Shown here piece after piece: positions 2,486 to 28,178 of a stretch of DNA of 32,327 bases. The translations under genes and the position numbers were made by a program. Below the pieces are notes generated by a model. The model saw nothing but the letters and a program-made list of their open reading frames with translations, did not search any database and had not been told where the DNA came from. Source of the stretch: Rhodococcus rhodnii NBRC 100604 (lineage in GTDB: Bacteria > Actinomycetota > Actinomycetes > Mycobacteriales > Mycobacteriaceae); contig NZ_BCXD01000037.1 of NCBI RefSeq assembly GCF_001894925.1, positions 1 through 32,327 on the forward strand, read 5' to 3'. Position 1 is the first letter of the stretch; each line of letters begins with the position of its first letter.

Positions 2486-3466
2486 TCAGCGAAGACCGGC
2501 AGCGATCGCCTCGACGGCCGTGACGTTGCCGAGTGTGCCCGGGAACAGGTCCGAGCCCGGGACGGCGACGAGGCGGTCGTCCCGAACCGCTCGCATGTCC
2601 GGGAACGTCGTGCGCAGATAGTCGAGCGTCGCGTCGCGCTGCGCGTCGTCGGACACCGCGAACACGAGTGCTTCGGGATCGCGGGCGGCGAGTTCCTCGG
2701 GCCCGACGGTCGCGGCGAAGAACGACGAGAACATCGGCTCGTCGGGACGGAAGACGTTCTTCCCACCCGCGCGCGCCACGATGTCGGCCTCGACACCCGC
2801 ACCGATCACCGACAGCGAGTTGCCTTCGACGTAGACCTGCGCGACCGTTCGCTGCGGACCTGCGCTGGTCTGCTCGTCGACGGCGGCGAGGCGTGCTCGC
2901 GATTGTGCGATCAGCTCCTCGGCACGCTCGGTGCGATCGAACACCGCACCGAGACCGTCGATGTCGGTGAACAGATCCTCGACGGACGCGCTGGTGCGGC
3001 GCTCGGCGCATCCGCCGGCCGCGACGTAGACCTGGGCGCCGGCGCCGCCGAGCTGTTCGATGCTCGCGAACCCCTGTTCCGCGGTGAACTCGTACTCGGT
3101 CGGTGACACCACGAAATCGGGTGCGGCGTCGAGCAGCACCTCCCGGTTCGGCGGCGTGTCGGTGCTCAGCACGGGCACGTCGGCGACTTCGGCCGCGATG
3201 CGCGGCGGCAGCGGCGAGGTGTCGGTCTGGCCGAGGCCCACGAGCGCGTCGGCGACGCCCAGTTCGACGAGCAGTTCGGTCTGCGACGGGCTGAGGGTGA
3301 CGACACGCTGCGGCGGCGCGTCGACTCCCACTGTCCTGCCGCAGTTCTCGACGGTCGTGGTGGTCTCGCCCGACGCTCGGGCGGCCTCGACGCCGCTGCC
3401 GCAGGCGGCGACGGTGAGCAGCGACGCAACGGCCGCGGCTGTGGCCGCGAGACGAATCGTGTTCAC
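2486..3466 (-). CDS. ABC importer substrate-binding lipoprotein, metal-chelate (FepB/BtuF) type
   Basis: A 326-residue extracytoplasmic receptor. The N-terminus is a lipoprotein signal peptide ending in the lipobox LTVAAC, so Cys22 or so would be lipidated. The body has the periplasmic-binding-protein fold used for siderophores, haem and cobalamin: PQRVVTLSPSQTELLVELG, then repeated substrate-lobe elements such as VLLDAAPDFVVSPTEY. The GTG start at 3466 overlaps the ATPase stop in the sequence GTGA, so translation is coupled. It is the last gene of a four-gene operon with permease, ATPase and an S9 peptidase. In this context the ligand may be the peptide encoded by the divergent operon, perhaps with a bound metal; that is inference. 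Alternatives are a foreign siderophore, cobalamin, or F420-0 as proposed for related actinobacterial transporters. Confidence 0.85.
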   Translation of the reverse strand: MNTIRLAATAAAVASLLTVAACGSGVEAARASGETTTTVENCGRTVGVDAPPQRVVTLSPSQTELLVELGVADALVGLGQTDTSPLPPRIAAEVADVPVLSTDTPPNREVLLDAAPDFVVSPTEYEFTAEQGFASIEQLGGAGAQVYVAAGGCAERRTSASVEDLFTDIDGLGAVFDRTERAEELIAQSRARLAAVDEQTSAGPQRTVAQVYVEGNSLSVIGAGVEADIVARAGGKNVFRPDEPMFSSFFAATVGPEELAARDPEALVFAVSDDAQRDATLDYLRTTFPDMRAVRDDRLVAVPGSDLFPGTLGNVTAVEAIAAGLR

Positions 3467-4245
3467 GGGAGTGGGGTTTCCTTTCGGTGACGTCCGTCGA
3501 TCACGAGATGTGAGCGACCGGTCTCGGGGTGGACGACGAGCGATCCGTCGACACCGAACACGGTGCGCAGCATCGTCGGAGTCAGGACGTCGTCGGGGGC
3601 GCCGTGCGCGTACACGCGGCCGTCGTGCAGGACGGCCACGGCATCGCAGTAGCGGGCGGCGAGGTCGAGATCGTGCAGCGCGACGATCGCCGTGACACCG
3701 AGTTCGGTGACGGTGTCGAGCAGCGAGTGGCGGTGAGCGATGTCGAGGTGATTGGTGGGTTCGTCGAGTACGAGCACCGGGGTCTGCTGGGCGATCGCGC
3801 GGGCGAGCAGCACACGCTGACGTTCGCCGCCCGAGAGCGTCGCGACGGAGCGGCCCAGCCACTGCTCGCCGTCGACGCACGCGAGTGCGCGTGTCGCGAT
3901 CTCGAGGTTCGCCGGGGCCGTGATGCGCCCGGTGTGCGGGGTGCGGCCGAGCAGCACGGTGTCGAGGACCGACAGTTCGAACTCCCCCGGGGGATCCTGC
4001 GTCATCGCCGCGACGAGGCGCGCCGCCACGCGCGGGGTACACGCATGCACGTCGTCGTCGCCGACGACGATCCTGCCGCGGTCGGGCCGCGCTGCCCGAT
4101 ACAGCGTGCGCAGCAGCGTCGACTTGCCGCTGCCGTTCGCGCCGAGCAGTCCGAGCACCGAACCCGACGGCACGGTCAACGTCACGTCCCGCACGACGGC
4201 CCGTCCGCCCCGCGCGACGGTGAGGTCGTCGAGCAGCACCTTCAT
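3463..4245 (-). CDS. ABC importer ATPase, FepC/BtuD type
   Basis: A 260-residue cytoplasmic ATPase that energises the adjacent FecCD permease. All expected motifs are visible: Walker A GANGSGKST, Q-loop AMTQDPPGEFELSV, signature LSGGERQRVLLARA, Walker B VLVLDEPTNHLD and the switch histidine in VALHDLDLAARYCD. Length and motif set match the iron-siderophore/cobalamin ATPase family. The ATG at 4245 overlaps the permease stop in ATGA, and its own stop overlaps the binding-protein GTG. Expression is therefore tied to the whole S9 peptidase-permease-ATPase-lipoprotein operon. Nothing in the sequence fixes the substrate. Confidence 0.9.
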   Translation of the reverse strand: MKVLLDDLTVARGGRAVVRDVTLTVPSGSVLGLLGANGSGKSTLLRTLYRAARPDRGRIVVGDDDVHACTPRVAARLVAAMTQDPPGEFELSVLDTVLLGRTPHTGRITAPANLEIATRALACVDGEQWLGRSVATLSGGERQRVLLARAIAQQTPVLVLDEPTNHLDIAHRHSLLDTVTELGVTAIVALHDLDLAARYCDAVAVLHDGRVYAHGAPDDVLTPTMLRTVFGVDGSLVVHPETGRSHLVIDGRHRKETPLP

Positions 4246-5366
4246 CGTTCGACTCCCGCCCGGGTCGCGTCGTCGCGGCGCAACAGCCACAGGAAGAACG
4301 GCGCACCGACGACCGCCGTGACGATGCCGATCGGGACCTCGGTGGGCGACGCCGCGGTGCGGGCAACGAGATCTGCAGCGGCGAGGAAGACCGCGCCGCC
4401 CGCCACGCACACGGGAACCATCCTCCGGTGACTCGATCCGACGACGATCCGCGCGATGTGGGGAATCACGAGTCCCACGAACCCGATTCCCCCGCACACC
4501 GCGACGACGGCACCGGTGAGCAGTGCAGCCAGGACGAGCGCGACGACACGCACCCGCGCGGGATCGACACCGAGGGCGGTCGCCTGTTCGTCGCCGACGA
4601 GGAGTGCGTCGAGCGAACGCGTCGAGACCGCGATCCACCCGACGACGACGGCGAGCGCGATCGCGGGAAGCACGAGATGCCCCATCGTCGCGGCCGAGAC
4701 GGATCCCAGCAGGAAGAACATGACGGAGAAGACGTTCTGCGCGTCGGTCGTCAGCGTGAGATAGCTGGTCACCGCGCTGAGCAGTGCGCCGAGCGCGACG
4801 CCCGCCAGAATCAGCCGCGTCGGCGCCAGCCGGCCGCCACGCCGCGCGAGGAGGTAGACGGCCGCCGTGGCGACGAGTGCGCCCGCGAACGCCGCGCCGC
4901 CGAGCAGCAGTGCACCCGCTCCGATGCCGGCGGCGATCACCGAGACGGCACCGACTCCCGCACCCGCCGACACTCCCAGGATGTACGGCTCGGCGAGTGG
5001 ATTGTGCACGACGGCCTGCACGAGCGCACCGGCGAGCGCGAGCCCGGCACCGGCGACCGCCGCGAGGAGTGCACGCGGCAACCGAAACTGCCAGACGACC
5101 TGGTCCTGGAGCAGCGTGTACGTGCCGTCGCTCATCCAGCGGGCGTTCGGAACGAGATGCCCCAGCACGAGTTTCACCGCGTCGAGCGGCGCGACCGTGA
5201 CGGTGCCGACGGCGAGCGACGCGACGAGAAGCGCCACGAGCGCGCCGCACAGCACCCCCGTGAGCAGCGCGCTGCGCCGGTCGCCGCGGCGTGCGAGCGC
5301 GGTGGCACCGGAGTCGCCCGGCCGCGAACGCGCCCGAATTCGAGATCCTGGCCGGATCGTGATCAT
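4242..5366 (-). CDS. ABC importer permease, FecCD/BtuC family
   Basis: A 374-residue integral membrane protein with about ten hydrophobic segments after a basic, roughly 30-residue cytoplasmic N-terminus. Family hallmarks are visible: LRLPRALLA-like FRLPRALLAAVAGAGLALAG, NPLAEPYILGVSAGAG, and the C-terminal GFVGLVIPHIARIVVG loop that couples to the ATPase. It forms the channel for a metal chelate or similar cofactor-sized ligand. The ATG at 5366 overlaps the stop of the upstream S9 peptidase gene in ATGA, so an intracellular peptidase and the import channel are made together. That linkage is unusual for a plain siderophore system and suggests that a peptide enters. Confidence 0.9.
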   Translation of the reverse strand: MITIRPGSRIRARSRPGDSGATALARRGDRRSALLTGVLCGALVALLVASLAVGTVTVAPLDAVKLVLGHLVPNARWMSDGTYTLLQDQVVWQFRLPRALLAAVAGAGLALAGALVQAVVHNPLAEPYILGVSAGAGVGAVSVIAAGIGAGALLLGGAAFAGALVATAAVYLLARRGGRLAPTRLILAGVALGALLSAVTSYLTLTTDAQNVFSVMFFLLGSVSAATMGHLVLPAIALAVVVGWIAVSTRSLDALLVGDEQATALGVDPARVRVVALVLAALLTGAVVAVCGGIGFVGLVIPHIARIVVGSSHRRMVPVCVAGGAVFLAAADLVARTAASPTEVPIGIVTAVVGAPFFLWLLRRDDATRAGVER

Positions 5367-7045
5367 GTGTCCTCCTCGAGAACGCGAGCGACGTACGAGA
5401 GAAACCGCGTACCGAGGTCGCGCAACGCGGTGGGGCTCGCGGGCCCGTGCCCGGCCCCCGCGATCCGGACGTGCTGCGCATCGACTCCCGCACGCCGCAG
5501 CACCTCGGCGAACCGTGGCCCCTGCGCGGCGTCGATGCGGCTGTCGTCGGCCATGTCGAGGACGAGGAACGGAGGCGCTCCCGCAGCACGGCTCCGCGCG
5601 AGCGACATCGGATCGTGTTCGGCGACAGCCGGTTCAGAGTGCAGGTCGCCGAACTCCCCGGCCCAGCGACTCCCCAGCGGGTTGTCGGAGAGCCGGGCGA
5701 GGTCGAGCGGTGCCGCCGTTGTCACGACCGCGGCGGCGATGCCAGGATGGCGCAAGGCCGCAGCAGCAGCGACCGTCCCGCCGAGCGACCCGCCCGTGAG
5801 GACCAGACAGTCGGGGCGGCTCGCTCCGACGGCGACCAGTTCGCGCGCGGCGCACGCGAGATCGTCGACGGCACGTCGCTTCCGGAGCCCGCGACCGTCC
5901 TGCCGCCACCGCTCGTCGCGTTCGCCGCCACCGCGCACCTGGGCGAGAGCGACCGCCCCACCTGCATCGAGCCATGCCGCCGTCGTCGGCTCGAAGTGCG
6001 GGACGTGCGCGACCCCGAAGCCGCCGTAGACGTCGAGCAGGAGCGGCCGTGGCCTGCGCACATCCGGCGGTCGCGTCACGAGAACGTCGATGTCGGCTCC
6101 GTCGTCCGCCCGAGCGACGACGATCTCGCCGGCGGCGGGGATCGCGGTGCGCGGATCCTCGCGCCACGGATAGCGGAACACCTGTGGCGGTGTCGCGACG
6201 CCGTCGAGTCGGACGTGGATCTCACCGTCCGACACCGACAGCGCATCGACGGAACAGATGTCGGTGCCCGCGGCGACGAGCCGTGTGTCGCGGACACGGC
6301 CACCGCGATCGACGAGGGTCAACCGATGCCGTCCCCGATCGACGGTGAGCACCGCGACTCCGCCCCGGCCCGCCGCGGCACCGATCGCAGTTCCGCGCGT
6401 CGGCACGACGCGGCGCCGCGGACTGCCGACCTCGATCGCATCCCGGCGCACGAGCGCGCGTACCCCGTCGTACTCGACGACCGTCACGGTGTCGGGTGGC
6501 AACTCCATGGTGGATCCTCGTGCGAAGTTGCAGAGCAGGACGGTCCCGCTGCGCCGAACGAGTACCCCGCCCGTGGACACCGAGATTCGCCCACGCGGCA
6601 CGTCGCGCGACTCCTGCCATCGACCGTCATCAGCATCGACGACGCCCACGCGCAAACGGCCGTCCGCCGTCAGCACGACTGTGCCGTCCGGCAGCCAGGC
6701 AGCCTGTTCGAGCGCGAACCGGGCCCCGGCGACGGGGACGACACGCCCGTCGGACCGGACGATCTCGACGGCCGCAGACTCGTCTGGGGCGAGCCGGGCG
6801 AGCACGGCACCGCTTCCCGCGCGCGCCGCGAGCACCCGCGCCGGGGCGGCGACACGACGCAGGGCGCGTCCGTCTGCGAGCGCCGTGAGCACGTCGTCGT
6901 CACCGTCCCGTCGCACCCGGTACCCGCCGGTGGGCAGGTGTGGACGCGGTGCGGCGCACTGCCAGTGGGCGTAGGCGTCGAGCAGCCGCGCGGTGGCGTC
7001 GCGGCCGCCGATCGGCGGAGTGGTCCGGGGCACGATCCGGAACAC
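5363..7045 (-). CDS. S9 prolyl-oligopeptidase-like serine peptidase
   Basis: A 560-residue cytoplasmic enzyme: an N-terminal region of short repeated beta elements (a propeller-like lid, about residues 40-300) followed by an alpha/beta-hydrolase domain. The catalytic set is visible as GGSLGG (Ser about 420), DDSRI (Asp about 501) and GAGHGP (His about 533); YGGFG and QVRGGGE are further S9 family elements. It is shorter than typical prolyl oligopeptidases of about 700 residues. GTG at 7045 is the chosen start because a -10-like CAAACT lies six bases upstream; GTG at 7033 is possible, and any earlier start would run into the divergent precursor gene. As first gene of the import operon it may cleave an imported peptide, or alternatively remove the precursor leader. 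Both roles are inferred. Confidence 0.8.
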   Translation of the reverse strand: MFRIVPRTTPPIGGRDATARLLDAYAHWQCAAPRPHLPTGGYRVRRDGDDDVLTALADGRALRRVAAPARVLAARAGSGAVLARLAPDESAAVEIVRSDGRVVPVAGARFALEQAAWLPDGTVVLTADGRLRVGVVDADDGRWQESRDVPRGRISVSTGGVLVRRSGTVLLCNFARGSTMELPPDTVTVVEYDGVRALVRRDAIEVGSPRRRVVPTRGTAIGAAAGRGGVAVLTVDRGRHRLTLVDRGGRVRDTRLVAAGTDICSVDALSVSDGEIHVRLDGVATPPQVFRYPWREDPRTAIPAAGEIVVARADDGADIDVLVTRPPDVRRPRPLLLDVYGGFGVAHVPHFEPTTAAWLDAGGAVALAQVRGGGERDERWRQDGRGLRKRRAVDDLACAARELVAVGASRPDCLVLTGGSLGGTVAAAAALRHPGIAAAVVTTAAPLDLARLSDNPLGSRWAGEFGDLHSEPAVAEHDPMSLARSRAAGAPPFLVLDMADDSRIDAAQGPRFAEVLRRAGVDAQHVRIAGAGHGPASPTALRDLGTRFLSYVARVLEEDT

Positions 7046-7055
7046 TACTAGAGTT

Positions 7056-7070
7056 TGGTTATCGTTTTCA
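7056..7070. promoter_or_regulatory. Zur-like AT-rich operator candidate in the divergent promoter
   Basis: TGGTTATCGTTTTCA (reverse TGAAAACGATAACCA) stands in an AT-rich island within very GC-rich DNA. It resembles actinobacterial Zur sites of the TGAAAATCGTTTTCA type, differing at three of 15 positions as I recall that consensus. It overlaps the promoter of the S9/import operon and lies just upstream of a possible -10 (TATGGT, 7073-7078) for the precursor gene, so one bound repressor could silence both directions. The symmetry is imperfect and the match is by eye. Confidence 0.4.
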
Positions 7071-7072
7071 TC

Positions 7073-7078
7073 TATGGT
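7073..7078 (+). promoter_or_regulatory. Possible -10 element for the RiPP operon
   Basis: TATGGT follows the AT-rich element and lies about 75 bases before the precursor ATG. The rest of 7079-7153 would be a 5' leader, ending in the ribosome binding site AGGAAAGG. No good -35 hexamer is visible. Confidence 0.3.
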
Positions 7079-7153
7079 CGCCGTGTCCACTCGGACCCAC
7101 CGCGTCAGCGGAAACCCGACTCCGCCGGTGGAATTCAGGAAAGGCAGGCACAC

Positions 7154-7264
7154 ATGATCGACAACGCCGAGACCGAGGCCGTGTACACGATCGAGGACAC
7201 CGACCAGCTCGCGCACCTGTCGGCGTCGCACTCGAACGCACTCGTGGAGAACCCGTTCGACTGA
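7154..7264 (+). CDS. Putative azole RiPP precursor peptide (36 residues)
   Basis: A 36-codon gene with a strong ribosome binding site (AGGAAAGG about ten bases before the ATG). The first half is acidic with Thr and Ile, as leader peptides often are (it includes AVYTIEDTDQL). The tail, HLSASHSNALVENPFD, holds Ser23, Ser25 and Ser27 plus His21 and His26, and the whole peptide lacks Cys. With a YcaO cyclodehydratase and a SagB-type dehydrogenase downstream, the tail serines are the natural candidates for oxazoline/oxazole formation. The gene is followed by a strong hairpin and then the maturation genes. I do not recognise it as a named RiPP. The leader/core boundary is not visible in sequence; roughly residues 19-22 is a guess. 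Confidence 0.75.
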   Translation: MIDNAETEAVYTIEDTDQLAHLSASHSNALVENPFD

Positions 7265-7275
7265 CCGTCACCGCA

Positions 7276-7310
7276 CGGGGTCGCCCACGGCCGAGCCGTG
7301 GGCGGCCCCG
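7276..7310 (+). terminator. Strong hairpin between precursor gene and maturation genes
   Basis: The stem 7276-7291 pairs with 7295-7310 over 16 positions (15 Watson-Crick pairs plus one G-U) around a 3-base loop; the core arms are CGCCCACGGC and GCCGTGGGCG. No T-run follows. It sits 11 bases after the precursor stop and 36 bases before the next ATG. This is where RiPP operons often carry a partial terminator or mRNA-stabilising hairpin that gives more precursor than enzyme. Confidence 0.7.
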
Positions 7311-7346
7311 CCGCCACCCTCACGCCGCCACCTGCCGAGGAGTCCG

Positions 7347-8027
7347 ATGACCTCATCCCCTCTCGCGCCCGAGGCGCACGTCTTCGACGTGCCCGGTCGG
7401 GGCCGTGCCATCCGCGCAACGGACGGGACGTTTCTCCGCGTCCGGCCCGGCGCCGACGAATCCGCCGCACGTGCGGGAGTCGCAGTACGTGCCCATCGAG
7501 ATCTGCAGCACCGCTGGACGACTCGCTGCACTCCGGCACGCGTCGTCGGCGACCACCCACTGCTCGACACGCTCCGCGACGTCCTCCCCGACGCCGGCAT
7601 CGACGTCGTCGCGGCGGGCGCAGGCGCGGTGACGATCGGTGCGTGGCTTCCCGGCGCCGCGCGTCCCGACGACACCGTGGTGTCCCCGGCGCTCGAGATC
7701 GCGATCGAGGGAGCGCTGGTCTTCGTCGGCCCGCTGCGGCTCGACGCGACCGACGCGACCCCGTCTCAGGTGCGCCGCCGACGCCACGCCGCCGCGATCG
7801 ACGGACCGGAACTGGCGCACTGGCATCGGACGGTCGACGATCCCCGTCACGACTTCGGCCGAGCCGCACACGCTCTGGTGGCGGCGCGCGTCCTCGACGT
7901 GCTTCGCGCCTGGCAGACCGATCCCGGTGCTGCCGACCGGTTGCGCGACGTCGTCTGGCGCTTCGACGATCACGCACTCACCACGAGCGAGCACGTCGTC
8001 CTCGGCTTCGACGAGCCGCATCCGTGA
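7347..8027 (+). CDS. RiPP cyclodehydratase partner / leader-peptide-binding protein (ocin-ThiF-like)
   Basis: A 226-residue protein that I assign as the partner (C protein) of the YcaO enzyme. The N-terminal third resembles the leader-binding region of such partners (HVFDVPGRGRAIRATDGTFLRVRPG). The middle has an E1-like pattern, ending in VFVGPLRLDATDATPSQVRRR where family members usually read GPL...C..C...R. Here both zinc-ligand cysteines are absent, so the E1-like half looks degenerate and the job is probably to present the precursor and activate the YcaO protein. GAGGAG precedes the ATG. Its stop overlaps the next start in GTGA. The assignment leans on context; sequence likeness alone is modest. 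Confidence 0.6.
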   Translation: MTSSPLAPEAHVFDVPGRGRAIRATDGTFLRVRPGADESAARAGVAVRAHRDLQHRWTTRCTPARVVGDHPLLDTLRDVLPDAGIDVVAAGAGAVTIGAWLPGAARPDDTVVSPALEIAIEGALVFVGPLRLDATDATPSQVRRRRHAAAIDGPELAHWHRTVDDPRHDFGRAAHALVAARVLDVLRAWQTDPGAADRLRDVVWRFDDHALTTSEHVVLGFDEPHP

Positions 8028-8959
8028 TCCGCGCGCCCCATCACTGCGTCGTACGGGACGGCGCCGTACTCGCCGGGCACCGCTACGAACCGGCCACGCG
8101 GCCTCGCGGCACCGTCCTGATGCGCACGCCGTACGACGCCGGTGCGCACGGCACCGCGGCCGCATGGTGGGTACGGCTCGGCTTCCGCGTCGTCGTGCAG
8201 GACGTCCGCGGCCGCTACCGCTCGGACGGCCGCTGGCTCCCCTACCGGAGCGAAGCGGACGACGGTGCGGACACGGCGACCCGGCTGGATCCACCCGTCG
8301 TCGCCGTCGGTACCTCGTACGGCGCGCACTGCGCCGTCGAGCTCGCGCGCGCCGCCCCCGTCGCGGCCGTGGTCGCGATGGTCCCGGCGCTCGGCCTGCA
8401 CGAGACTGCCACCCGAAACGGAACCCGCTGCGTCCGTGACCGTCTCGGGTGGTGGCACGAGCACGGCTTCGGCCGCTTCTCGGCACCGCCCGCGGCGCCG
8501 GAGCGGCTCGACCACGCCACCGAGACGGCTCGGCGTCGCGGCATCGACCGTGCGCCCGCCGCACTCGGCTGGCCCGAGAACCGCGCCGCGGCATGGCGTC
8601 GGCTGTGGGATGCTCCCCCACTCGACTTCACCGACCGGTATGCGGACGCCCGCGCTCCGCTGCTCGTGCTGGGCGGCGACCACGACTTCTTCGCGGCCGA
8701 TGCCGTCCGGCTCGCGCAGTCGTGGCCCGTCGACGCCCTGCACGTGAGTGGGCCGTGGGGGCACCGGCTCCTCGCGGGCGTGCCGGAGCCGATGCGCGAG
8801 GCGCTGCGTGCGCACGGAGGGCCGGGGACGGTCGTCGCGGCGTGGCTCGGCGGAGTCCTCGGCGATCGTCCTGGTCCGCACCCCCGTACCGGAAGTCGGG
8901 TACTCGATCCCGACGCCGGATGGCGACATCACCCGACCCGACCGAAAGAACGTTCGTGA
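8024..8959 (+). CDS. CocE/NonD (peptidase S15-like) alpha/beta hydrolase
   Basis: A 311-residue alpha/beta hydrolase. The N-terminus has the S15/CocE pattern: MRTPYDAG, then VVVQDVRGRYRSDGRW, then the nucleophile elbow VGTSYGAHCA with the active serine. The acid is probably in LGGDHDFFAAD and the histidine in SGPWGHRLL. It lacks the C-terminal jelly-roll domain of full-length X-Pro dipeptidyl peptidases, so only the catalytic part is present. The GTG start and stop both overlap neighbours in GTGA, placing it firmly within the RiPP maturation operon. The likely role is removal of the leader or trimming of the modified peptide; esterase activity on another substrate cannot be excluded. Confidence 0.75.
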   Translation: MIRAPHHCVVRDGAVLAGHRYEPATRPRGTVLMRTPYDAGAHGTAAAWWVRLGFRVVVQDVRGRYRSDGRWLPYRSEADDGADTATRLDPPVVAVGTSYGAHCAVELARAAPVAAVVAMVPALGLHETATRNGTRCVRDRLGWWHEHGFGRFSAPPAAPERLDHATETARRRGIDRAPAALGWPENRAAAWRRLWDAPPLDFTDRYADARAPLLVLGGDHDFFAADAVRLAQSWPVDALHVSGPWGHRLLAGVPEPMREALRAHGGPGTVVAAWLGGVLGDRPGPHPRTGSRVLDPDAGWRHHPTRPKERS

Positions 8960-10335
8960 CCACTCGACGTCTCCTCTCCCCCGACGACCTCGTCGACCCC
9001 GTGACGGGCATCGTCCGCTCCGTCCGCGAGGTACTGCGCCCGCCCGGCGCTCCCGAGCGCTACGTCTCGCTCACGGCATCGGTCGCCGACGCGCGGCGGC
9101 TCGGTGACTGGCCCGCCGACCGCGTGTCGCTCGGGACGAGCTTCGGCGATCCCGCGACCGCACGCATCGCCGCGATCGCGGAGGCGGTCGAACGCTACTG
9201 CGGCAACTGGATTCCCCCGGAGCCCGGGGCGCACCACCGGATCACCACCGCGGCCGCGCTGCGCGGGGCGGGTGAGAACACGCTCGACGAGTTCCCCCGC
9301 TTCGCTGCGTGGCAACTGGAGCGACCCGGCTTCCCGTACCGCGACGTCACCGACGACACCGAGACGCTGTGGGTGCGGTGCAGCGACGAATCGCGAGCCG
9401 GCGATACGGCGCCGATCTGGGCTCCCGCCTCGCTCGTCCTGCTCAACTGGCGGCGATCGTGGCTACGCGAGCTCCCTCGCCTCCATCACCTCAACTACGC
9501 GGGAATCGCGACCGGACAGGGCGTCGCCGACGCTCGCGATCGCGGCATCCTCGAGGTGATCGAACGCGACGCACTCGAAACCTGGTGGCATCTGGACGGT
9601 CCGACACACGGGATCGACCTCGACTCCGTCCCCGGCCTCCGCGAGGATCTCGCGGGAGGCCGCCTCGACGCACACGCCGTCACGATGCCGAGCGAATTCG
9701 CACCGTGCGTCGCCGCACTCGTTCGCGATCCCGACACCGGCATCCGGGCAGCAGGTTTCGCCTCGAGTCTGTCGCCCGAGCGCGCGGTGCGCAAGGCCGT
9801 ACTCGAAGCGATCCACACGTGGGCGTTCACGCTGGGTGTCCTCGAACCCGGCGGATGGGTGTTCCGCGCCGTCGACGCAGGTCTGTCGGCGCCGGGCCTG
9901 TACCTCGGCCATCGGGCCGACGGACGATACCTCGACTCCGCCGGTGCGCACTTCGAGAACGTCGTCGACCTCGGCGCGCACGTCCAGGTGTGGCTCGACG
10001 AGCGAACGCATCGCGAGGAGCGCCGCTTCACCGAACCCGCCCTCGGCGAACGCGCGATCGGCACCGTTGCGGCGACGACGATGCCCGAGGTCCGTCGCCG
10101 TCTCGCCGCACGAGGCCATCGCGTGATCACGTGCGACCTGACCACACGCGACATCGCACGCACGCCGCTGCGCGTCGTGCGCTCGCTCGTGACGGGGCTC
10201 GTCCCCAACGCACCCGCCGCGTTCACGTACTACGGCTGCCCACGTTTCGGGGAGGTGGCGGTCGCGCGCGGCTGGCGGACATCCGTCCCGTCCGGGCCCG
10301 ACGACCTGTCGCTGCTTCCGGCTCCCCACATGTGA
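8956..10335 (+). CDS. YcaO-domain azoline cyclodehydratase (D protein)
   Basis: A 459-residue YcaO enzyme, which uses ATP to activate backbone amides so that Ser, Thr or Cys side chains close to azolines. Key ATP/Mg motifs are visible: EAVERY (residues about 76-81), GQGVADARDRGILEVIERDALE, and the later helix ERAVRKAVLEAIHTWAF. The C-terminus ends LLPAPHM, a partly proline-rich tail in the place where azoline-forming YcaO proteins often have a PxPxP motif. The GTG at 8956 overlaps the upstream stop, which decides the start over an ATG at 8920. It is immediately followed by the dehydrogenase. Because the precursor has no Cys, the expected products are oxazolines rather than thiazolines. Confidence 0.88.
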   Translation: MTTRRLLSPDDLVDPVTGIVRSVREVLRPPGAPERYVSLTASVADARRLGDWPADRVSLGTSFGDPATARIAAIAEAVERYCGNWIPPEPGAHHRITTAAALRGAGENTLDEFPRFAAWQLERPGFPYRDVTDDTETLWVRCSDESRAGDTAPIWAPASLVLLNWRRSWLRELPRLHHLNYAGIATGQGVADARDRGILEVIERDALETWWHLDGPTHGIDLDSVPGLREDLAGGRLDAHAVTMPSEFAPCVAALVRDPDTGIRAAGFASSLSPERAVRKAVLEAIHTWAFTLGVLEPGGWVFRAVDAGLSAPGLYLGHRADGRYLDSAGAHFENVVDLGAHVQVWLDERTHREERRFTEPALGERAIGTVAATTMPEVRRRLAARGHRVITCDLTTRDIARTPLRVVRSLVTGLVPNAPAAFTYYGCPRFGEVAVARGWRTSVPSGPDDLSLLPAPHM

Positions 10336-11309
10336 TGACGGCACACGAGCTCCTCACGCGCGCACTGCGTCCCGGCGACCCGGGACCGCCGCTGCCACCG
10401 GGGCCCCGCGACGGCGGCTGGCTCGGGGTGGGTGCCGAACCCGTCACGGTGCCGCCGGACTGGGACGCACTGCTGGATGCGTTGTGGCGGCCCACCGGAT
10501 TCCATGTCACCGCCGACGGGCAGCCGACCACGATCGCTCGACGGCCGGTTCCGTCGGCCGGCGGGACGTACGGCGTCCGTACCCACCTCGTGATTCCCGC
10601 GCACGCCCGCGGCACCCTCGCGCCGGGTCGGTACGTGCATCTGCGTGAGGACTCGCTGCTGGTGCGTCGCACCGACGGTCCGCCACCACCGGACGGCGAG
10701 CACGCGAGTGTGGTGTTCACCGCCGCTCCCGGACGCGCCTTCGGCCGCTACCGCCACCGTGCGTGGCCGCTGTGGATCGCCGACACGGCATACGCCGTCG
10801 CGACGCTCGAACGACTCGTCGTCACCGGAACCGCGACGCTCGGGTCGCCGGCGACGTGCACGATCGCCGCGCTCGCACCGGCCTCCGACACCGCATGGTG
10901 GGCGCGGTCGGGTGCGCCCGAACTGACGCTCGCGCACATCACGCTGCCGAACGGTCCGCAGCCGGACACGGCTGCCGCGCAGCACTTCTCGCGACGTCGC
11001 TCGCCCTCACATGCACGCTTCATCGCACGAGACGAGAGCAACGATCCGACGTCGCGCGCCGTCGCCGCGGCCTCGCAGCAACAGTGGGTCGCGCACGCCG
11101 CGACGACGGCACTGTGGACGGTCCCCGGGCACTTCGGGGCACACGACGTGTGGTGCACCCACCTCGCGGCGGCGCGACTCGCGGCGAGCGCCGTCCTCGC
11201 GGGACTGCAGGTGCGCGCCGTGTCGGGCATGACCTCGACCGCCCCGCCGTACCCGCTTCATGCGCTCGCCTTCCTCGATCTCCCCGAAGGAGGACTCTCG
11301 TGGTCGTAG
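10335..11309 (+). CDS. SagB-type FMN-dependent dehydrogenase (B protein)
   Basis: A 324-residue protein with nitroreductase-fold features of SagB-type azoline oxidases. The clearest signature is PVPSAGGTYGVRTHLVI followed by LAPGRYVHLREDSLLVR, which corresponds to the PSAGG...Y..V motif and following strand of that family. FGRYRHRAWPLWIADTAYAVATLERL corresponds to the helix that follows. The C-terminal half is more divergent. It would oxidise azolines to aromatic azoles with FMN. The ATG overlaps the YcaO stop by one base (TGATG), and its own end overlaps the ABC gene by ten bases. Presence of a B protein suggests that the mature product contains true oxazoles. Confidence 0.75.
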   Translation: MTAHELLTRALRPGDPGPPLPPGPRDGGWLGVGAEPVTVPPDWDALLDALWRPTGFHVTADGQPTTIARRPVPSAGGTYGVRTHLVIPAHARGTLAPGRYVHLREDSLLVRRTDGPPPPDGEHASVVFTAAPGRAFGRYRHRAWPLWIADTAYAVATLERLVVTGTATLGSPATCTIAALAPASDTAWWARSGAPELTLAHITLPNGPQPDTAAAQHFSRRRSPSHARFIARDESNDPTSRAVAAASQQQWVAHAATTALWTVPGHFGAHDVWCTHLAAARLAASAVLAGLQVRAVSGMTSTAPPYPLHALAFLDLPEGGLSWS

Positions 11310-12937
11310 CAGCCGAGTTGTGGCGCGCCGCCTTCACACATCCGCGACACGCATTCGTCACCGTCGGCACACATCTGGCCGTCGCGTCGACTCATGCTCT
11401 CGGCGCACTCGCCCTCGCGGTCGCGCTGTCCGGAATAGCAACGCGCCATTCCGCCACGATCGCCGCGGGTCTCGCAGCCGTCCTCGGCCTCGCGCTCGTG
11501 CGTGCCGCGTTCGGCGAGGTGGAGGCGAACGCCGCCGGGAGGCTCGGCGCGACCGTGGCCGGGACACTGCGTGATCGCGCACTCGCCGCCACAGCCGTAC
11601 CCACGCGCCTGCACGACGTGAGCGCACGTGACGGCCGCACCCTCACGACCCTCGTCGACGGGGTGGACGGCGTCGACGCCTATGTGACGCGCTATCTCCC
11701 GGTCGCGGTGACGGTCGTCGTCGTCACACCGGCTGTGCTCGTCGCGGTGGCGGTGCTGTCGCCGCTCGCCGGCGCCGCCGCCTTCGTCGGCGTCGCCCTC
11801 GCACTCGCCGGTCCGATGGCGTGGCGACGCGCGATGCGGTCGCGCGAACCACGGCACTGGGACTCCTACGAGCGGCTCGCCGCCGACCTCCTCGACGCAC
11901 TGCGATCGATGGCGACGGTGCGTGCCCTCGGCGCCACCCGCGACCTGCGCGACTCCCTCGGTGCCCGCTCGGACGCGCTGCATCGCGCGACCGTCGGGGC
12001 GATGCGCATCTCGCTGGTGGACACCGCGATCGTCGATCTGGCCGTCCAGGGTGGATACGTCGTCGCCGTCGCTCTCGCCGCCACGGGGGCCGGTGACTCG
12101 CATCCGCTCGCGCTCTACGCGGTACTGCTGCTCGCGTCCGAGGCGTTTCGGCCCGTTCGCGACCTCGCCCGCGAATGGCACGCCGGGTTCCTCGGCATGT
12201 CGGCGTTACCCGGACTGCGCGCCGCTGGAGCATTCGACCCGGTTGCAGAGCCGGCGGCGCCGCAGCAGCCCGGCGCGACGCGCGGTGCCCGACTCGCCTT
12301 CTCCGGTGTGCGCTTCCGCTACCCCGACGCCGCCGAGGACGTCCTCGGCGGCGTGGATCTCGACCTCCGGCCCGGTGCACTCCACGCACTCACCGGCGAG
12401 TCGGGTGCAGGCAAGAGCACTCTGCTCGATCTCGCGCTCGGGCACCTGACCCCCACCTCCGGCACCGTCCTCGTCGGCGACACCGCGCCCGAGGCGGGAT
12501 GCCTCGCGGTCGTGTCGCAACACCCTGTCCTGTTCCACGGCACCGTCCGCGCGAATCTCGCCGCGGGAGCCCACGCCCCGAGCGACACCGACCTGCGCCG
12601 TGCCGCCGCGGCCGCCGGTGCACGAGACGTCGTCGCCGCGCTCGGACTGGACGGCATGATCGCCGAGGCCGGTTCGTCGCTGTCGGGTGGGCAGCGGCAG
12701 CGGCTCGCGGTGGCACGCGCGCTCGCGTCCGACCGACCCGCGCTGCTCGCCGACGAACCGACGAGCGCGCTCGACGACGGCAACGCACGCCGCGTCCTGG
12801 CAGCACTGCGGGACGCCGCGCGCGACCGAGTCGTCGTGGTCGTCACGCACCGCATCGATCTTCTCGAGCCCGAGGACGAGGTGCTGCGGCTGACGGGCGG
12901 GTGCGTCGTCACCGAATGCCGGGAGGCGGCCCGATGA
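11300..12937 (+). CDS. ABC exporter half-transporter, CydD-like, RiPP operon
   Basis: A 545-residue fused membrane/ATPase protein. Roughly residues 1-300 hold about six membrane segments, and residues 330-545 hold the ATPase: Walker A GESGAGKST, signature LSGGQRQRLAVARAL, Walker B ALLADEPTSALDD and switch histidine VVVTHRIDLL. GTG at 11300 is preceded by GGAGG seven bases upstream. It starts inside the dehydrogenase gene and ends in ATGA overlapping the second half-transporter, so the two should form a heterodimer. The overall look is of the CydDC branch, but cytochrome bd oxidase genes are not here. The probable role is export of the mature peptide. Confidence 0.85.
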   Translation: MVVAAELWRAAFTHPRHAFVTVGTHLAVASTHALGALALAVALSGIATRHSATIAAGLAAVLGLALVRAAFGEVEANAAGRLGATVAGTLRDRALAATAVPTRLHDVSARDGRTLTTLVDGVDGVDAYVTRYLPVAVTVVVVTPAVLVAVAVLSPLAGAAAFVGVALALAGPMAWRRAMRSREPRHWDSYERLAADLLDALRSMATVRALGATRDLRDSLGARSDALHRATVGAMRISLVDTAIVDLAVQGGYVVAVALAATGAGDSHPLALYAVLLLASEAFRPVRDLAREWHAGFLGMSALPGLRAAGAFDPVAEPAAPQQPGATRGARLAFSGVRFRYPDAAEDVLGGVDLDLRPGALHALTGESGAGKSTLLDLALGHLTPTSGTVLVGDTAPEAGCLAVVSQHPVLFHGTVRANLAAGAHAPSDTDLRRAAAAAGARDVVAALGLDGMIAEAGSSLSGGQRQRLAVARALASDRPALLADEPTSALDDGNARRVLAALRDAARDRVVVVVTHRIDLLEPEDEVLRLTGGCVVTECREAAR

Positions 12938-14592
12938 TCCGATCCGATCGGCCCGGGGAAACGCGAGGTCCGGTCCGCGACGCGGCGATCGCACTCGGGC
13001 GACTGGTCCCGGTACTGCGGCCGCAGTGGCGGACGGCCGCACTCACCACCGTGGTCGCGACCGCCGGGGGCGCCCTCCTCGTCGCTCTGGTCGTCGCGGT
13101 CGCGGCGATCGTCGGCCGGATCGCCGTCACCGGCACGGCCCCCTCGCTCGGCGCCTGGGCGGCACTCGGCCTGGGCGTCCTCGTGCGCGCGGCACTGACG
13201 TGGTGGGAGATGGACCTGTCGCACTCGCTCGCGTATCGCGTTCTCGCACAGCTCCGTTCCGAAGTCTTCGCGCGCTACACGGTCGCCGTGCCGGGACGGC
13301 AGCCGGTTCGTTCGGGACATGCGGCGACGGTGCTCGGTGACATCGAGAAGCTCGAGTTCTTCTACGCACACACCCTCGCGCAACTCGTCGGCACCGGCGT
13401 TCTCGTGTCGGCGGGACTCGCCGCTCTCGTCGTCGTCGACGGAGCGCTCGCCGCCGTCGCCGCTGCCGGACTCGTCGCGCTCGTCGTCGTCACCGCGATC
13501 GATGCCCCTCGCGCAGCGCGTGCGGGCGCCGACGTCACCGCTGCGCGCAGTGCCCTGTCGGCACGGGTCGCCGACGTTCTCGGGGGCATGCGGGAGGTCC
13601 TCGGCTACGGTCTCGCCGCCCGGATCCGCCGCGACGTCGGTGCCGCGTCCCTCGGCCTGGCCCGCACCCACGCCCGACGCGAGCGCCTCTCCCGGCGTGC
13701 CGACACCATCCGGGACGTCGTCGTCACCGTCTCGGTGGTGGCGGTGGTCGCCGTGGCCTCCGCGGGCACGATCTCGCCGCAGTGGGTGCCGGCGCTGGCC
13801 GCCGGAACGCTCGGAGTCCTGGCGCTCGCCGCGTCCGCGGCGACGACCGTCGCCGCACTTCCGGCACTGGCCGCGTCGGCCGCGCGCGTGGGCGACGCGC
13901 TCACGCTGCCGCCCGCGACCACCCCCGTCACCGCACCGCTGCCCGCCCCGTCCGGCGATCTCGGACTTCGCGTTCGCGGGCTGCGATTCGCCTACGACGA
14001 CGCCGTCGTGCTGGACGACCTCGATCTCGATGTCGCGCCGGGTGAGTTCGTCGCGATCACCGGGCCGTCGGGGGCAGGAAAGTCGACACTCGCGACGCTC
14101 CTGGCACGTCTCGTCGATCCCGACGACGGGACGATCAAGCTCGTGGGGAACGACGCTGCGGCACCGCTCGCCGCGCTCGCCGACGACACCCTGCGCCGCT
14201 GCGTCACGCTCGTCGCCCAGGACTGCGCCGTTCTGCGCGGCACCGTGCGCGAAGCCCTGCTCCACGGAAACGTCCGGGACGCCGAAGACGACGAACTCGA
14301 CCGGATGCTGACGCAAGTCGGACTGAGCGGGGCGATCGACCTCGACGCCACGATCGGGTACGGCGGGCTGCGGCTCTCCGGCGGCCAACGCGCGCGGCTG
14401 TGCCTCGCGCGCGCCCTGCTCCGCAGGCCCCGGATCCTGATCCTCGACGAGATCACCGCCGCACTCGACGATCGCACCGAGGCCGAGGTCGTGCGGTTGC
14501 TCCGCGAGACGGACTGCACGCGAGTGGTCGTGTCGCATCGGCCGGCCACCGTCGCTGCCGCCGACCGGGTGGTGACGATGTCGGCACCATGA
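12934..14592 (+). CDS. ABC exporter half-transporter, CydC-like, RiPP operon
   Basis: A 552-residue partner of the preceding protein. About six membrane segments lie in residues 30-310. The ATPase domain has Walker A GPSGAGKST, signature LSGGQRARLCLARAL, and a Walker B/D-loop that reads ILILDEITAALDD with Ile in place of the usual Pro in DEP. The switch histidine is in VVVSHRPATV. The ATG at 12934 overlaps the upstream stop. This is the last gene of the rightward operon; a new promoter-like element follows. With its partner it probably exports the modified peptide, completing a produce-export-reimport set with the divergent FecCD system. Confidence 0.85.
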   Translation: MIRSDRPGETRGPVRDAAIALGRLVPVLRPQWRTAALTTVVATAGGALLVALVVAVAAIVGRIAVTGTAPSLGAWAALGLGVLVRAALTWWEMDLSHSLAYRVLAQLRSEVFARYTVAVPGRQPVRSGHAATVLGDIEKLEFFYAHTLAQLVGTGVLVSAGLAALVVVDGALAAVAAAGLVALVVVTAIDAPRAARAGADVTAARSALSARVADVLGGMREVLGYGLAARIRRDVGAASLGLARTHARRERLSRRADTIRDVVVTVSVVAVVAVASAGTISPQWVPALAAGTLGVLALAASAATTVAALPALAASAARVGDALTLPPATTPVTAPLPAPSGDLGLRVRGLRFAYDDAVVLDDLDLDVAPGEFVAITGPSGAGKSTLATLLARLVDPDDGTIKLVGNDAAAPLAALADDTLRRCVTLVAQDCAVLRGTVREALLHGNVRDAEDDELDRMLTQVGLSGAIDLDATIGYGGLRLSGGQRARLCLARALLRRPRILILDEITAALDDRTEAEVVRLLRETDCTRVVVSHRPATVAAADRVVTMSAP

Positions 14593-14604: not shown

Positions 14605-14618
14605 GTTGACAATTCAAC
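14605..14618 (+). promoter_or_regulatory. -35-like TTGACA within a small inverted repeat
   Basis: GTTGACAATTCAAC contains a consensus -35 hexamer (TTGACA) and 5-bp inverted arms (GTTGA/TCAAC). It lies 12 bases after the exporter gene and about 80 bases before the esterase start. The -10 region is not distinct. It indicates that the esterase has its own promoter. Confidence 0.35.
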
Positions 14619-14695
14619 TTGCACATCGCTGCGCGAACGGGGGTCCGTGCGGCACGGCCAGACACCACTGGTCGTCGACCCGCCCGAGGATCCCC

Positions 14696-16348
14696 ATGAC
14701 GCACTCGCTCCCCGATGCGCATCGCCGCCCCCGTCGGCTCCGAAGCATCGCAGCCGCATCGCTCGCCGCTCTCGTCACGACTGCAGGAGCGGGGATCTGG
14801 GCGTACAACGCACCCACCGCGACGCACGCAGCCCCCGATCTTCGGGCTTCGGTCACCACGTGTCACGACATGGTCGCGGTGACGATATCCGGTCGTGGCG
14901 GCGGCATGGCGAACCGCGACGATGACGACCCCCGATGGTTGAGGGACGCGAACTCGGCTCCCCTCCCGGCATCCCTCGAATACGGGAACCGGTGGGTCGA
15001 TCCCGTCCTGGGCCCGGCCGGTGACGAACTGGGCGACGGCTTCGCGGCGGTTCACATCGCCTATCCCGCCGACCTCGGAAGCTACGACCGCGCCGTGGAG
15101 ACCGGTGTCGCGAACGCCGAGCAGGTGATGCGTGCCATCGGCGCAGCGTGCCCCGACACCCGGTTCGCGATCGTCGGCTACAGCCAGGGGGCCGACGTCG
15201 CGCGCCGTCTCGCGATGGGAATCGGCAACGATCCGAACGGTTCCGTCGTCGATGCCGCACACGTACTCGGAGTCGTCGTGATCGCCGACCCGGGTCGCTC
15301 GATCGGCGACGGCGCCTTCCCCGGGGCTCGTGACCCGTTCCGCGGCCCGGACGGATTCGACCTCGACTATCGGACAGGGACTGCGACGACACCCGGCTCG
15401 GGCCTTCTCGGTGGCACCGCAGGAAGTTTCGGCGCGCTCGACGGCAGAGTTGCGTCCTTCTGCTCCGACGGGGATTTCACCTGCGCGGCACCGGAGAACA
15501 TCGCCCTGCTACGAGTACTGATCAACATCGGCACCGCGCTCGAGATCGAGTCCCTGCAGACGGACGGCCCGACCCTCGATCACGCCGGCGAGTTCGCGCG
15601 CATTCTCACCCGCACCGTCGTTCTCGCGTTCGCCGACATCCGCTCGCAGCCGGCATGGCTCACGACCGACAAGAGCTTCCTCGACGTACTCGTCAAGGTG
15701 TCGGCGCCGACCTATGTTCCGAGCGAACCTCCAGCCCCCTCGGTCGAACCGACGTTGGGTCGCCTCGCCTCGCTCACTCACCTCCCGCGCAAGACGGCCG
15801 AGGAGATCATCGGTTTCGTCCTCGACAATCGAGGACTCCTCGACGTCGTCCGGTCCGACCCGTACGACACGACGTTCGCGCCCGACGGCGGCATGCACTT
15901 CGACTACTGGAACGACGACACGGACAAGCCACACACCTCCATCGACTACGCCGCCGCATGGCTCGCCCATCTCGGCCGCCAAGTGGCGCAGGGACGCACC
16001 GTCGACAGCGCCGAGCCGGACGAGACGACCCTCGAGGCAACCCTCGTCGCAGCCGAACGAACCCTCGAGCCCGACGCCTCCCCCGCGAACGACCCGGTCG
16101 TGGACGAGACTTCCGCAACCGACACCGCCGTCGCGCCGACGACGACCAGGGAGCGCACCCTCACCTCACCGACCGCGACGCCGGGGCCCGACGCGGCGAC
16201 CACGACGTCGCGGACTCCGTCGAGCGTCGCACCGACTCACGCCGACTCGACGCCCGTCATCACGACACCGGCGGCCCCCACCACCACGAGAGCGACGTCG
16301 TCCGAGGACCCCGACACCGACTCGGTGACAACCCACCGCGGCGAGTGA
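14696..16348 (+). CDS. Secreted cutinase-family serine esterase with large insertion and Thr/Pro-rich tail
   Basis: A 550-residue secreted esterase. A basic start (RRPRRLRS) and a hydrophobic core ending near THAAP form a signal peptide. The cutinase fold shows TTCHDM (Cys56), the nucleophile GYSQG (Ser163), and FCSDGDFTC (Cys256, Asp260, Cys263). The histidine is most likely MHFDYW (His401), so Asp and His are about 140 residues apart; in small cutinases they are close. Residues 264-400 are thus an inserted region. From about 440 the chain is Thr/Ser/Pro/Glu-rich and low-complexity, as in cell-wall-spanning linkers. GAGGA precedes the ATG at 14696; a longer frame upstream is rejected. The substrate may be lipid or polyester, and the gene looks independent of the RiPP operon. 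Confidence 0.82.
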
Positions 16349-16647
16349 CCGACGGAGTCACTCGGAGAGGTGCTCGCGCAACGTCGTTCCGGAGTGGGCC
16401 GTATGCGCGCGGGGTCGGCGAAGACGCCGGCCTCTCGGTCGAGCCGGACGGCGGCGACGCCAGGCACCGCCCGACAACCACGTCGGGGACAGCGACAGTC
16501 CGATGTGCGGTGAAGCCGGGGCGCCGAGCGTCGTCACGAACTCGATCGTGGAGTCGGGCGAGAGCGCCGACGAGTGATCGGCGACACAGCAGGAGGGTAG
16601 GCTCGAATCGTCGACGAGAAGATCCGCCACCGACGAAAGGACATCCC
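16349..16647 (-). pseudogene. Gap of about 300 bases with a possible decayed minus-strand gene
   Basis: No intact gene is visible. On the minus strand a gene-like frame ([20 protein letters not shown], about 16470-16540) loses its GC-rich third positions. A neighbouring frame then looks coding ([20 protein letters not shown], about 16395-16460), and the first frame returns to end in TTLREHLSE at 16358. This pattern suggests a short remnant with frameshifts or sequencing errors. I do not recognise the product, and chance is not excluded. Confidence 0.25.
16598..16603 (+). promoter_or_regulatory. Possible -10 of the xylulokinase promoter
   Basis: TAGGCT lies 44 bases before the ATG at 16648, leaving a short leader with an AAGGA ribosome binding site. 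The -35 position is weak. Confidence 0.3.
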
Positions 16648-28159: not shown

Positions 28160-28178
28160 CACACCGCGCACCGTGACA

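What the first reader, a model, noticed from the sequence alone, without database searches (positions are those of the whole stretch)
2486..14592. Candidate azole-RiPP produce-export-reimport system, possibly a peptide metallophore
Seen: a 36-codon precursor-like gene, leader-binding partner, S15-type hydrolase, YcaO enzyme, SagB-type dehydrogenase and two half-ABC exporters in one overlapping operon. Divergent from it, sharing about 110 bases of promoter DNA, is an overlapping operon of an S9 peptidase and a complete FecCD-type importer. Known: FecCD/FepB-type systems import metal chelates and cofactors. Inferred: the oxazole/His peptide leaves the cell, binds a metal (zinc is the first guess from the Zur-like site) and is taken back up. 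I do not recognise a described RiPP system with this exact architecture.
Basis: partly seen in the sequence, partly recalled or inferred. Interest (0 to 1): 0.9.

Follow-up and report, generated by a model that had tools for sequence, protein, structure and literature searches.

The report
Zinc-controlled streptamidine-type peptide gene cluster
This is a member of a published family of bacterial gene clusters that make a small modified peptide of unknown purpose (streptamidine), and the DNA switches in front of nearly all examined clusters of the family look like those that respond to zinc shortage, which suggests the peptide helps bacteria obtain zinc.

Summary
The observed genes are really there, but the system is described: gene for gene it is the streptamidine (ami) RiPP cluster of Russell et al. 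2021 (PMC8442711). The predicted core HLSASH is streptamidine's HLSATH with Thr5 changed to Ser; ALVENPFD is follower, so a short amidine peptide is expected, not an oxazole peptide ending ALVENPFD. The window's branch differs in its importer (one permease plus a divergent S9 peptidase). The paper's main text does not mention Zur and reports no metal binding and no metal-starvation phenotype. Best reading: a Zur-controlled zinc-starvation RiPP, exported, re-imported and hydrolysed; chelation is unproven. Bold reading: streptamidine is the spent form of an amidine-plus-azole octapeptide, since the paper's unassigned m/z 414.69 equals HLSATHSN so modified.

The parts
2486..3466 (-). F_BP: FecB-like substrate-binding lipoprotein (lipobox LTVAAC); related below cut-off to the 'F420-0' binding protein TIGR03868
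   Evidence: in 37 distinct ami loci the residues conserved at >=95% include two Cys besides the lipobox Cys, but no His
3463..4245 (-). F_ATP: FecE-like importer ATPase (MKVLLDD...)
   Evidence: open frame; tblastn 45-65% in window-type loci; the family searches were given a wrong frame for it
4242..5366 (-). F_PERM: single FecCD permease
   Evidence: PF01032 1.2e-90; 61-79% identity among window-type loci, 30-44% (mostly 32-40%) to the two permeases of the other loci
5363..7045 (-). S9 prolyl-oligopeptidase-like peptidase, no signal peptide evident by eye; start GTG 7045 tentative
   Evidence: PF00326 2.2e-26; Ser, Asp and His at the triad positions (assigned by eye) conserved at >=95% of 33 aligned homologues
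7056..7070 (.). Zur-type box TGGTTATCGTTTTCA (reverse TGAAAACGATAACCA), 10/14 to TGAAAATNATTTTCA, between the two divergent operons
   Evidence: close relative G002 has TGAAAACGATTATCA (12/14) at the same place
7154..7264 (+). AmiA precursor MIDNAETEAVYTIEDTDQLA-HLSASH-SNALVENPFD (leader-core-follower; borders by homology)
   Evidence: core HLSASH vs streptamidine HLSATH
7347..8027 (+). AmiB: E1-like/RRE-type partner protein
   Evidence: no family hit; AlphaFold model pLDDT 79.6 matches RiPP heterocyclase partners
8024..8959 (+). AmiC: S15/CocE-type alpha/beta hydrolase, expected to free His1 by removing the leader
   Evidence: PF02129 3.9e-17; TIGR00976 65.6 bits against a 66.3 cut-off; role inferred in PMC8442711
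8956..10335 (+). AmiD: YcaO enzyme ending ...LLPAPHM
   Evidence: PF02624 2.5e-37; TIGR03604 173 bits, below the 219 cut-off; 45-72% to AmiD of the other loci
10335..11309 (+). AmiE: nitroreductase-fold dehydrogenase
   Evidence: AlphaFold pLDDT 86.2; nitroreductase, ThcOx and McbBCD chain C matches
11300..12937 (+). AmiT1: half ABC exporter (CydD-like)
12934..14592 (+). AmiT2: half ABC exporter (CydC-like)

Best explanation
The locus is a streptamidine-type RiPP cluster under Zur control. When zinc is scarce, Zur leaves the box at 7056-7070 and both divergent operons are expressed (inferred from conserved sequence). AmiB and AmiD activate and cyclise the HLSASH core, AmiC removes the leader so that the freed His1 amine closes a six-membered amidine on Leu2, AmiE oxidises part of the peptide, and T1/T2 export it (steps by homology to the mutational work on streptamidine; the roles of AmiC and AmiE are the paper's or my inference). 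The peptide, with its strictly conserved His6 and almost always His1, then captures zinc, or zinc held by another ligand, outside the cell (inferred, unproven). The lipoprotein/FecCD/ATPase importer brings it back, and the cytosolic S9 peptidase cuts it to release its cargo (inferred). Likelihoods: streptamidine-type cluster 0.97; Zur control of the family 0.9 (of this window's own box 0.8); zinc-acquisition role 0.55; re-import followed by S9 hydrolysis 0.45.
For: Same gene set as the published cluster; core HLSASH vs HLSATH. 85 of 86 distinct loci have a box of >=10/14 within 130 nt upstream of amiA, against 1 of 86 for the reversed consensus and about 3.5% of shuffles. Streptomyces-type loci carry a second box of >=11/14 ahead of the importer operon, 45 of 52, control 0 of 52. 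In this genome the same pattern hits 6 sites (2 for the backward control); 4 of the 6 lie at an MRF GTPase/rpmG-rpsN-rpsR pair, aztAB, aztD and an ArsR-Fur operon. Unlike importers (30-44% permease identity) serve the same peptide, both with boxes. Importer lipoprotein and AmiD co-occur: 11 with both, 11 lipoprotein only, 7 AmiD only, 365 neither of 394 genomes, Fisher p 2.4e-11 (the two searches are taken to have drawn the same 394). Two Nocardiopsis genomes (genus inferred) lost amiB-E but keep importer, exporter and boxes of 13-14/14.
Against: Published streptamidine bound none of seven metal ions by LC-MS and gave no CAS signal; the null mutant behaved like wild type under metal starvation. 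Deleting the importer genes abolished production, which is odd for a pure uptake system. Importers without AmiD are common (11 of 22), and 4 of those 11 have no box of >=10/14 directly in front of the importer. The window's own box is among the weakest (10/14, P 0.014 alone) and was not among the six sites. No expression or binding data exist here.
Confidence: 0.55

Rival explanations
1. The peptide is a zinc-starvation signal or a public cue, not a chelator: Zur controls its synthesis and the importer senses it, as in peptide signalling by re-import.
For: The paper found no metal binding and no antibiotic activity and itself suggests signalling or development; importer deletion abolished production, as a feed-forward loop would. 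The zinc-type boxes fit equally.
Against: None of the ten window proteins searched hit a regulator or receptor family; the importer is of the FecCD metal-chelate/cofactor class rather than an oligopeptide permease; strict conservation of His6 (97 of 97) and near-strict of His1 (94 of 97) suggests ligands.
Confidence: 0.2
2. The system serves another metal or cofactor (cobalt, copper, manganese, a corrinoid) and the boxes bind another Fur-family regulator.
For: The lipoprotein is nearest, though far below cut-off, to the 'F420-0' binding protein, and the permease to F420-0/BtuC models; FecCD importers carry many chelates.
Against: The box matches the actinobacterial Zur consensus (PMC2823685, PMC5472717; passages), and in this genome the pattern sits at ribosomal-protein paralogues and the Azt zinc importer.
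Confidence: 0.12
3. One reading: an oxazole/His peptide retaining ALVENPFD is exported, binds zinc and is re-imported.
For: YcaO plus E1-like partner plus nitroreductase-fold dehydrogenase is the azole toolkit; Zur boxes.
Against: The characterised homologue is HLSATH with an amidine and no azole; ALV lies outside the core. ALVENPF or ALVANPF follows 97 of 97 core copies read, as expected for a recognition or cleavage element.
Confidence: 0.05
4. An antibiotic cluster in which exporter, importer and peptidase are self-immunity.
For: Klebsazolicin, another amidine RiPP, blocks the ribosome (stated in PMC8442711); S9 peptidase beside the importer.
Against: No antibacterial or antifungal activity of streptamidine; Zur control is not expected for a weapon.
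Confidence: 0.06

Closest known systems
Streptamidine (ami) cluster, Streptomyces albidoflavus J1074 (PMC8442711)
   Same: Precursor with H-x-S-A-[S/T]-H core and ALV follower, AmiB, AmiC, AmiD, AmiE, T1/T2, FecB-type importer; core differs by one residue (T5S).
   Different: Window has one permease plus an S9 peptidase, divergent from the precursor operon; the paper describes four FecBCDE-like genes. Its main text has no occurrence of 'peptidase' or 'Zur'; its supplement was not seen.
Klebsazolicin and bottromycin pathways
   Same: YcaO-made amidine (stated in PMC8442711).
   Different: Antibiotics without a known importer (recalled); klebsazolicin also has azoles. Not compared by sequence here.
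Coelibactin, the Zur-repressed zincophore of S. coelicolor (PMC5472717 passages)
   Same: Actinobacterial biosynthetic cluster with Zur-bound promoters, called a zincophore.
   Different: Described there as enterobactin-type; non-ribosomal (recalled).
Opine-like zincophores such as staphylopine (PMC7438024, start of abstract in the search listing)
   Same: A small zinc-scavenging molecule made by bacteria; make-export-re-import logic (recalled).
   Different: Non-ribosomal metabolites; other transporters (recalled).
Methanobactin (recalled)
   Same: Ribosomal peptide metallophore that is re-imported.
   Different: Copper; other enzymes; no YcaO. Recalled, not tested.

Membership tests
Streptamidine-type (ami) RiPP clusters | Precursor with motif A: short core then ALV follower | tested here: met
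   HLSASH-SNALVENPFD; the same core/follower pattern in 97 core copies of 86 distinct loci
Streptamidine-type (ami) RiPP clusters | Stand-alone YcaO of the AmiD clade | tested here: met
   45-72% to AmiD of the ami loci (45-50% only for L065 and L017), against 29-39% to the distant YcaO loci; no tree was built
Streptamidine-type (ami) RiPP clusters | AmiB (E1-like/TruD-like), AmiC hydrolase, AmiE dehydrogenase, AmiT1/T2 | tested here: met
Streptamidine-type (ami) RiPP clusters | Four FecBCDE-like genes amiF1-F4 (major published subset) | tested here: not met
So: member of the family, not of its major subset as described
Streptamidine-type (ami) RiPP clusters | Product is an N-terminal His1-Leu2 amidine | not testable with these tools
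   Predicted [M+H]+ 633.310 for HLSASH amidine
Streptamidine-type (ami) RiPP clusters | AmiE HY motif | not tested
   Fold tested only
Linear azole peptides (TOMM) | Azole rings in the product | not testable with these tools
   Enzyme set compatible; characterised homologue has none
Linear azole peptides (TOMM) | SagD-type cyclodehydratase at NCBI cut-off (TIGR03604) | tested here: not met
   173.1 bits vs cut-off 219.25
Zur regulon | Zur box in the promoter, conserved | tested here: met
   Family: 85 of 86 loci >=10/14; window box 10/14
Zur regulon | Zinc-dependent Zur binding or expression | not testable with these tools
   Needs EMSA or transcript data
Zincophore | Product binds zinc | not testable with these tools
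   Published result for streptamidine is negative
F420-0 ABC transporter (TIGR03868/03869) | Score above model cut-off | tested here: not met
   125 vs 392 bits and 271 vs 437 bits

The most novel reading that the evidence does not exclude
Streptamidine is not the working product but the spent form. The active compound is a longer, Zur-controlled zinc-binding octapeptide: His1 amidine plus one azole on HLSATHSN (HLSASHSN here), with an azole next to His6 giving an imidazole-azole zinc site. After re-import, peptidases (the S9 enzyme in this branch) cut it to HLSATH, HLSAT and HLSA. This would explain why the dehydrogenase and importer are needed for 'streptamidine' although it carries no oxidation, why it binds no metal, and the unassigned m/z 414.69, which equals the doubly charged amidine+azole octapeptide (414.691). 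Bacteria that lost the biosynthesis but kept the Zur-boxed importer would be users of others' peptide.
Probability: 0.22. Interest if true: 0.85.

Novelty: new variant of a known kind. Interest (0 to 1): 0.66.

Why it matters
[quoted passage not shown] A near-universal Zur-type box at the precursor promoter, and at the importer promoter of the Streptomyces type, gives a specific condition (zinc starvation) and a specific regulator to test, and may explain the failed tests if cultures were zinc-replete or the isolated compound was truncated. If right, it would be a ribosomal, YcaO-made zinc acquisition peptide; I know of no such case (recalled, not an exhaustive search).

Tried and rejected
Undescribed system: rejected; the architecture is published. 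Product ending ALVENPFD: rejected by homology. 'Window box alone proves Zur': rejected; alone its P is 0.014. Uniqueness of the m/z 414.69 assignment: one match among 15,090-18,600 combinations for each of three precursors, but a random doubly charged peptide ion in the same range matches some candidate of the broad list 42% of the time and of the list starting at His1 with an amidine 1.9%, so it is a lead, not proof; the true S. albidoflavus AmiA sequence was not at hand. AmiB search in the order, 397 genomes: apart from the window itself, one hit at 1e-9 and six near 1e-4; AmiB is too divergent to trace by sequence. Own genome's second YcaO (C8:19153-20157): no ami genes or boxes of >=10/14 near it. 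First box count picked start codons inside the box in some loci; redone. First AmiD alignment had wrong strands; redone. In some searches the ATPase was given in a wrong frame; not repeated there. Whether importers beside T1/T2-like exporters without YcaO (L178-L183, L185) form another peptide system was not resolved.

Rows dropped: of 101 loci, 7 had no precursor recognised by the script (L052, L065, L067, L108, L111, L123, L135). Looked at afterwards, L052 does have the precursor and an 11/14 box, L065 has a different motif and boxes of 13/14 and 12/14; the other five are contigs shorter than 12 kb. Eight duplicates were removed (94 to 86). Starts of L063 and L083 were set by eye. The one failing locus is L055 (= L080, Jiangella; 9/14).

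Papers: PMC8442711: parts 1-3 of 5, the Conclusions section and find passages read; supplement and figures not seen. PMC5472717 and PMC2823685: passages only. Others: search listing with abstract starts only. That Zur is not linked to this family in print rests on the searches and the find (0 occurrences of Zur in that main text); most subscription papers are not in that library, and it is said to hold no bioRxiv collection.
Full report
What is in the window. Between 2486 and 14592 lie two divergent operons separated by about 108 nt. Leftward: an S9 prolyl-oligopeptidase-like enzyme, one FecCD permease, an ATPase and a FecB-type lipoprotein. Rightward: a 36-codon precursor, a 226-aa protein, an S15-type hydrolase, a YcaO enzyme, a 324-aa protein and two half ABC exporters. 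The ATPase rests on its open frame and on tblastn, because searches were given a wrong frame for it. The two proteins without family hits were modelled from alignments of their homologues (22 and 25 sequences). The 226-aa protein matches the E1-like parts of RiPP heterocyclases: 4v1u/4v1v (LynD, name recalled), TruD and the McbBCD complex. The 324-aa protein matches a nitroreductase, the oxidase ThcOx and chain C of McbBCD.

What it is. Russell et al. 2021 (PMC8442711; read) described this gene set as the streptamidine family: amiF1-F4 FecBCDE-like importer, amiA precursor, amiB, amiC hydrolase, amiD YcaO, amiE dehydrogenase, amiT1/T2. The product from core HLSATH has a six-membered amidine between the His1 amine and the Leu2 carbonyl, and no azole. 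The window precursor reads ...DQLA-HLSASH-SNALVENPFD: the core differs by one residue and ALV is the family signature. Across 86 distinct loci, 97 core copies were read: HDSASH 31, HLSASH 28, HLSATH 16, HASATH 7, HASASH 7, THSAGH 3, HHSATH 3, HLSSTH 1, HNSASH 1. Ser3 and His6 are present in 97 of 97 and His1 in 94 of 97; the follower is SNALVENPF in 91 and SNALVANPF in 6. Near the window's organism the cluster is rare: of 101 relatives searched with the 36-aa precursor, 5 matched at E<=1, of which three (own, G002, G037) carry the motif.

A second importer type. Two main arrangements appear. Streptomyces-type loci have two permeases, read in the same direction as amiA and upstream of it, and no S9 gene. 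Window-type loci (Nocardiopsis, Streptomonospora, Marinactinospora, Saccharomonospora, Prauserella, Jiangella, Microbacterium, Leucobacter, Brachybacterium, Rhodococcoides and others) have the divergent S9 peptidase plus a single permease. Permease identity to the window is 61-79% in the second type and 30-44% (mostly 32-40%) in the other loci, so unlike importers serve the same peptide. An S9 homologue was found in 34 distinct loci; the Ser, Asp and His taken as its triad are conserved in at least 95% of 33 aligned ones. Three Streptomyces loci (L105, L119, L134) carry a window-type importer downstream as well, and in L061 the importer lies downstream too.

Zur boxes. The consensus TGAAAATGATTTTCA (7-1-7) comes from papers, not from these loci (PMC2823685, PMC5472717; passages). 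Scored over 14 positions within 130 nt upstream of amiA, 85 of 86 distinct loci reach at least 10 and 79 of 86 at least 11. For the reversed consensus 1 of 86 reaches 10 and none 11; in 1,720 shuffles about 3.5% reach 10 and 0.3% reach 11. In 52 loci without the divergent S9 gene, a second box of at least 11 was sought 3.0-5.2 kb upstream of amiA: 45 of 52 have it, at 4.0-4.4 kb, control 0 of 52; in the six loci inspected a lipoprotein gene follows it. Of the seven without it (L017, L063, L064, L081, L105, L119, L134), L081 has a 12/14 site just outside the region scanned, and L017, L063 and L064 have 11-12/14 sites about 1 kb upstream of amiA. Sites of at least 11 elsewhere in these loci number 27 in 1.48 Mb. 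In the window's own genome the pattern with up to 3 mismatches hits 6 sites (2 for the backward control). Four of them lie at an MRF GTPase/rpmG-rpsN-rpsR pair, aztAB, aztD and an ArsR-Fur operon, which is the expected Zur regulon (recalled pattern from actinobacteria); the other two are unclear. The window's ami box scores 10 and was not among those six; its relative G002 has TGAAAACGATTATCA (12), the commonest importer box of the Streptomyces type.

Beyond the ami branch. Of 12 distant YcaO loci (29-37% to AmiD), 8 have a site of at least 11, against 1 of 12 (L197) for the reversed pattern; 11 of the 12 have a FecCD-type permease within the 20 kb, 9 of them at 42-55% identity. Zur control may thus extend to the wider family; site positions relative to genes were not checked there, and the L193 site is far from its YcaO gene.

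Importer without the peptide. In 394 genomes of the class (two searches taken to have drawn the same set), 22 have the importer lipoprotein at E<=1e-40 and 18 have AmiD at 48% identity or more; 11 have both, Fisher p 2.4e-11. Two of the 11 importer-only genomes (G540, G578) have a distant YcaO of 35-37%. Of the 11 importer-only loci, 7 have a box of at least 10 in front of the permease or operon (L176, L179, L181, L183, L184, L185, L186; in L186 it lies some 700 nt ahead of the permease, beside the decayed precursor) and 4 do not (L177, L178, L180, L182; L180 has a 10/14 site about 650 nt upstream that I did not count). L184 and L186 keep importer, exporters and boxes of 13 and 14 of 14 but have no match to amiB-E or S9; L186 still holds a decayed precursor with an in-frame stop. 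Their genus tag g137 is shared with named Nocardiopsis loci. This looks like loss of synthesis with retention of uptake.

How it may work, and what speaks against it. Regulation by Zur is strongly predicted. Zinc binding is not shown: the published tests with streptamidine were negative for seven metals, and the null mutant had no phenotype under metal starvation. Three published oddities fit a longer active form: the dehydrogenase and the importer are needed for a compound that carries no oxidation, the products form a C-terminal ladder (HLSA, HLSAT, HLSATH), and m/z 414.69 was left unassigned. The last equals doubly charged HLSATHSN with one amidine and one azole (414.691), with a chance match rate of 1.9% for candidates that start at His1 with an amidine, and 42% for the unrestricted list. 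Against this, importer deletion abolished all pathway compounds rather than letting a longer form accumulate, and m/z 414.69 was seen only in some heterologous cultures and never in S. albidoflavus.

Verdict. The locus is a new variant (single-permease, S9-peptidase branch) of a known RiPP family; whether that branch is in the paper's supplement could not be seen.

Noticed in passing
   Followed up: partly
L178-L183, L185: The same importer directly beside CydDC-like exporters (about 34-43% to T1/T2) but without an AmiD match or a recognised precursor; L179, L181, L183 and L185 have Zur-type boxes of 10-11/14. Possibly another secreted ligand system.
   Followed up: partly
L188, L190, L191, L195, L199: Distant YcaO clusters (35-37% to AmiD) with FecCD importers also carry Zur-type boxes of 11-12/14, with two boxes close together in L188, L190 and L199.
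   Followed up: partly
own genome C19:93412, C6:262379, C6:264636, C10:12628 (L146, L148, L149, L150): Likely Zur regulon of this organism: MRF GTPase, ribosomal proteins L33/S14/S18, AztAB/AztD zinc importer, ArsR-Fur operon.
   Followed up: yes
own genome C8:19153-20157 (L002, L187): A second YcaO gene (PF02624 6.8e-25) with no ami genes or Zur-type boxes nearby; role unknown.
   Followed up: partly
G521 (contigs C1, C4, C5; L033, L062, L173-L175): Three AmiD matches and three importer lipoprotein matches in one 3.5 Mb genome.
   Followed up: no
window 810-1304: Small flavodoxin-like protein.
   Followed up: no
window 14606-16348: Cutinase-family protein directly downstream of the cluster.
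   Followed up: no
window about 16.6-26 kb: Sugar/polyol genes: FGGY kinase, mannitol-type dehydrogenase, sugar-binding regulator, MalK-type ABC ATPase.
   Followed up: no
window 27422-31186: TetR regulator, KshA-type Rieske oxygenase and a thiamine-diphosphate enzyme; KshA suggests steroid breakdown.
   Followed up: no
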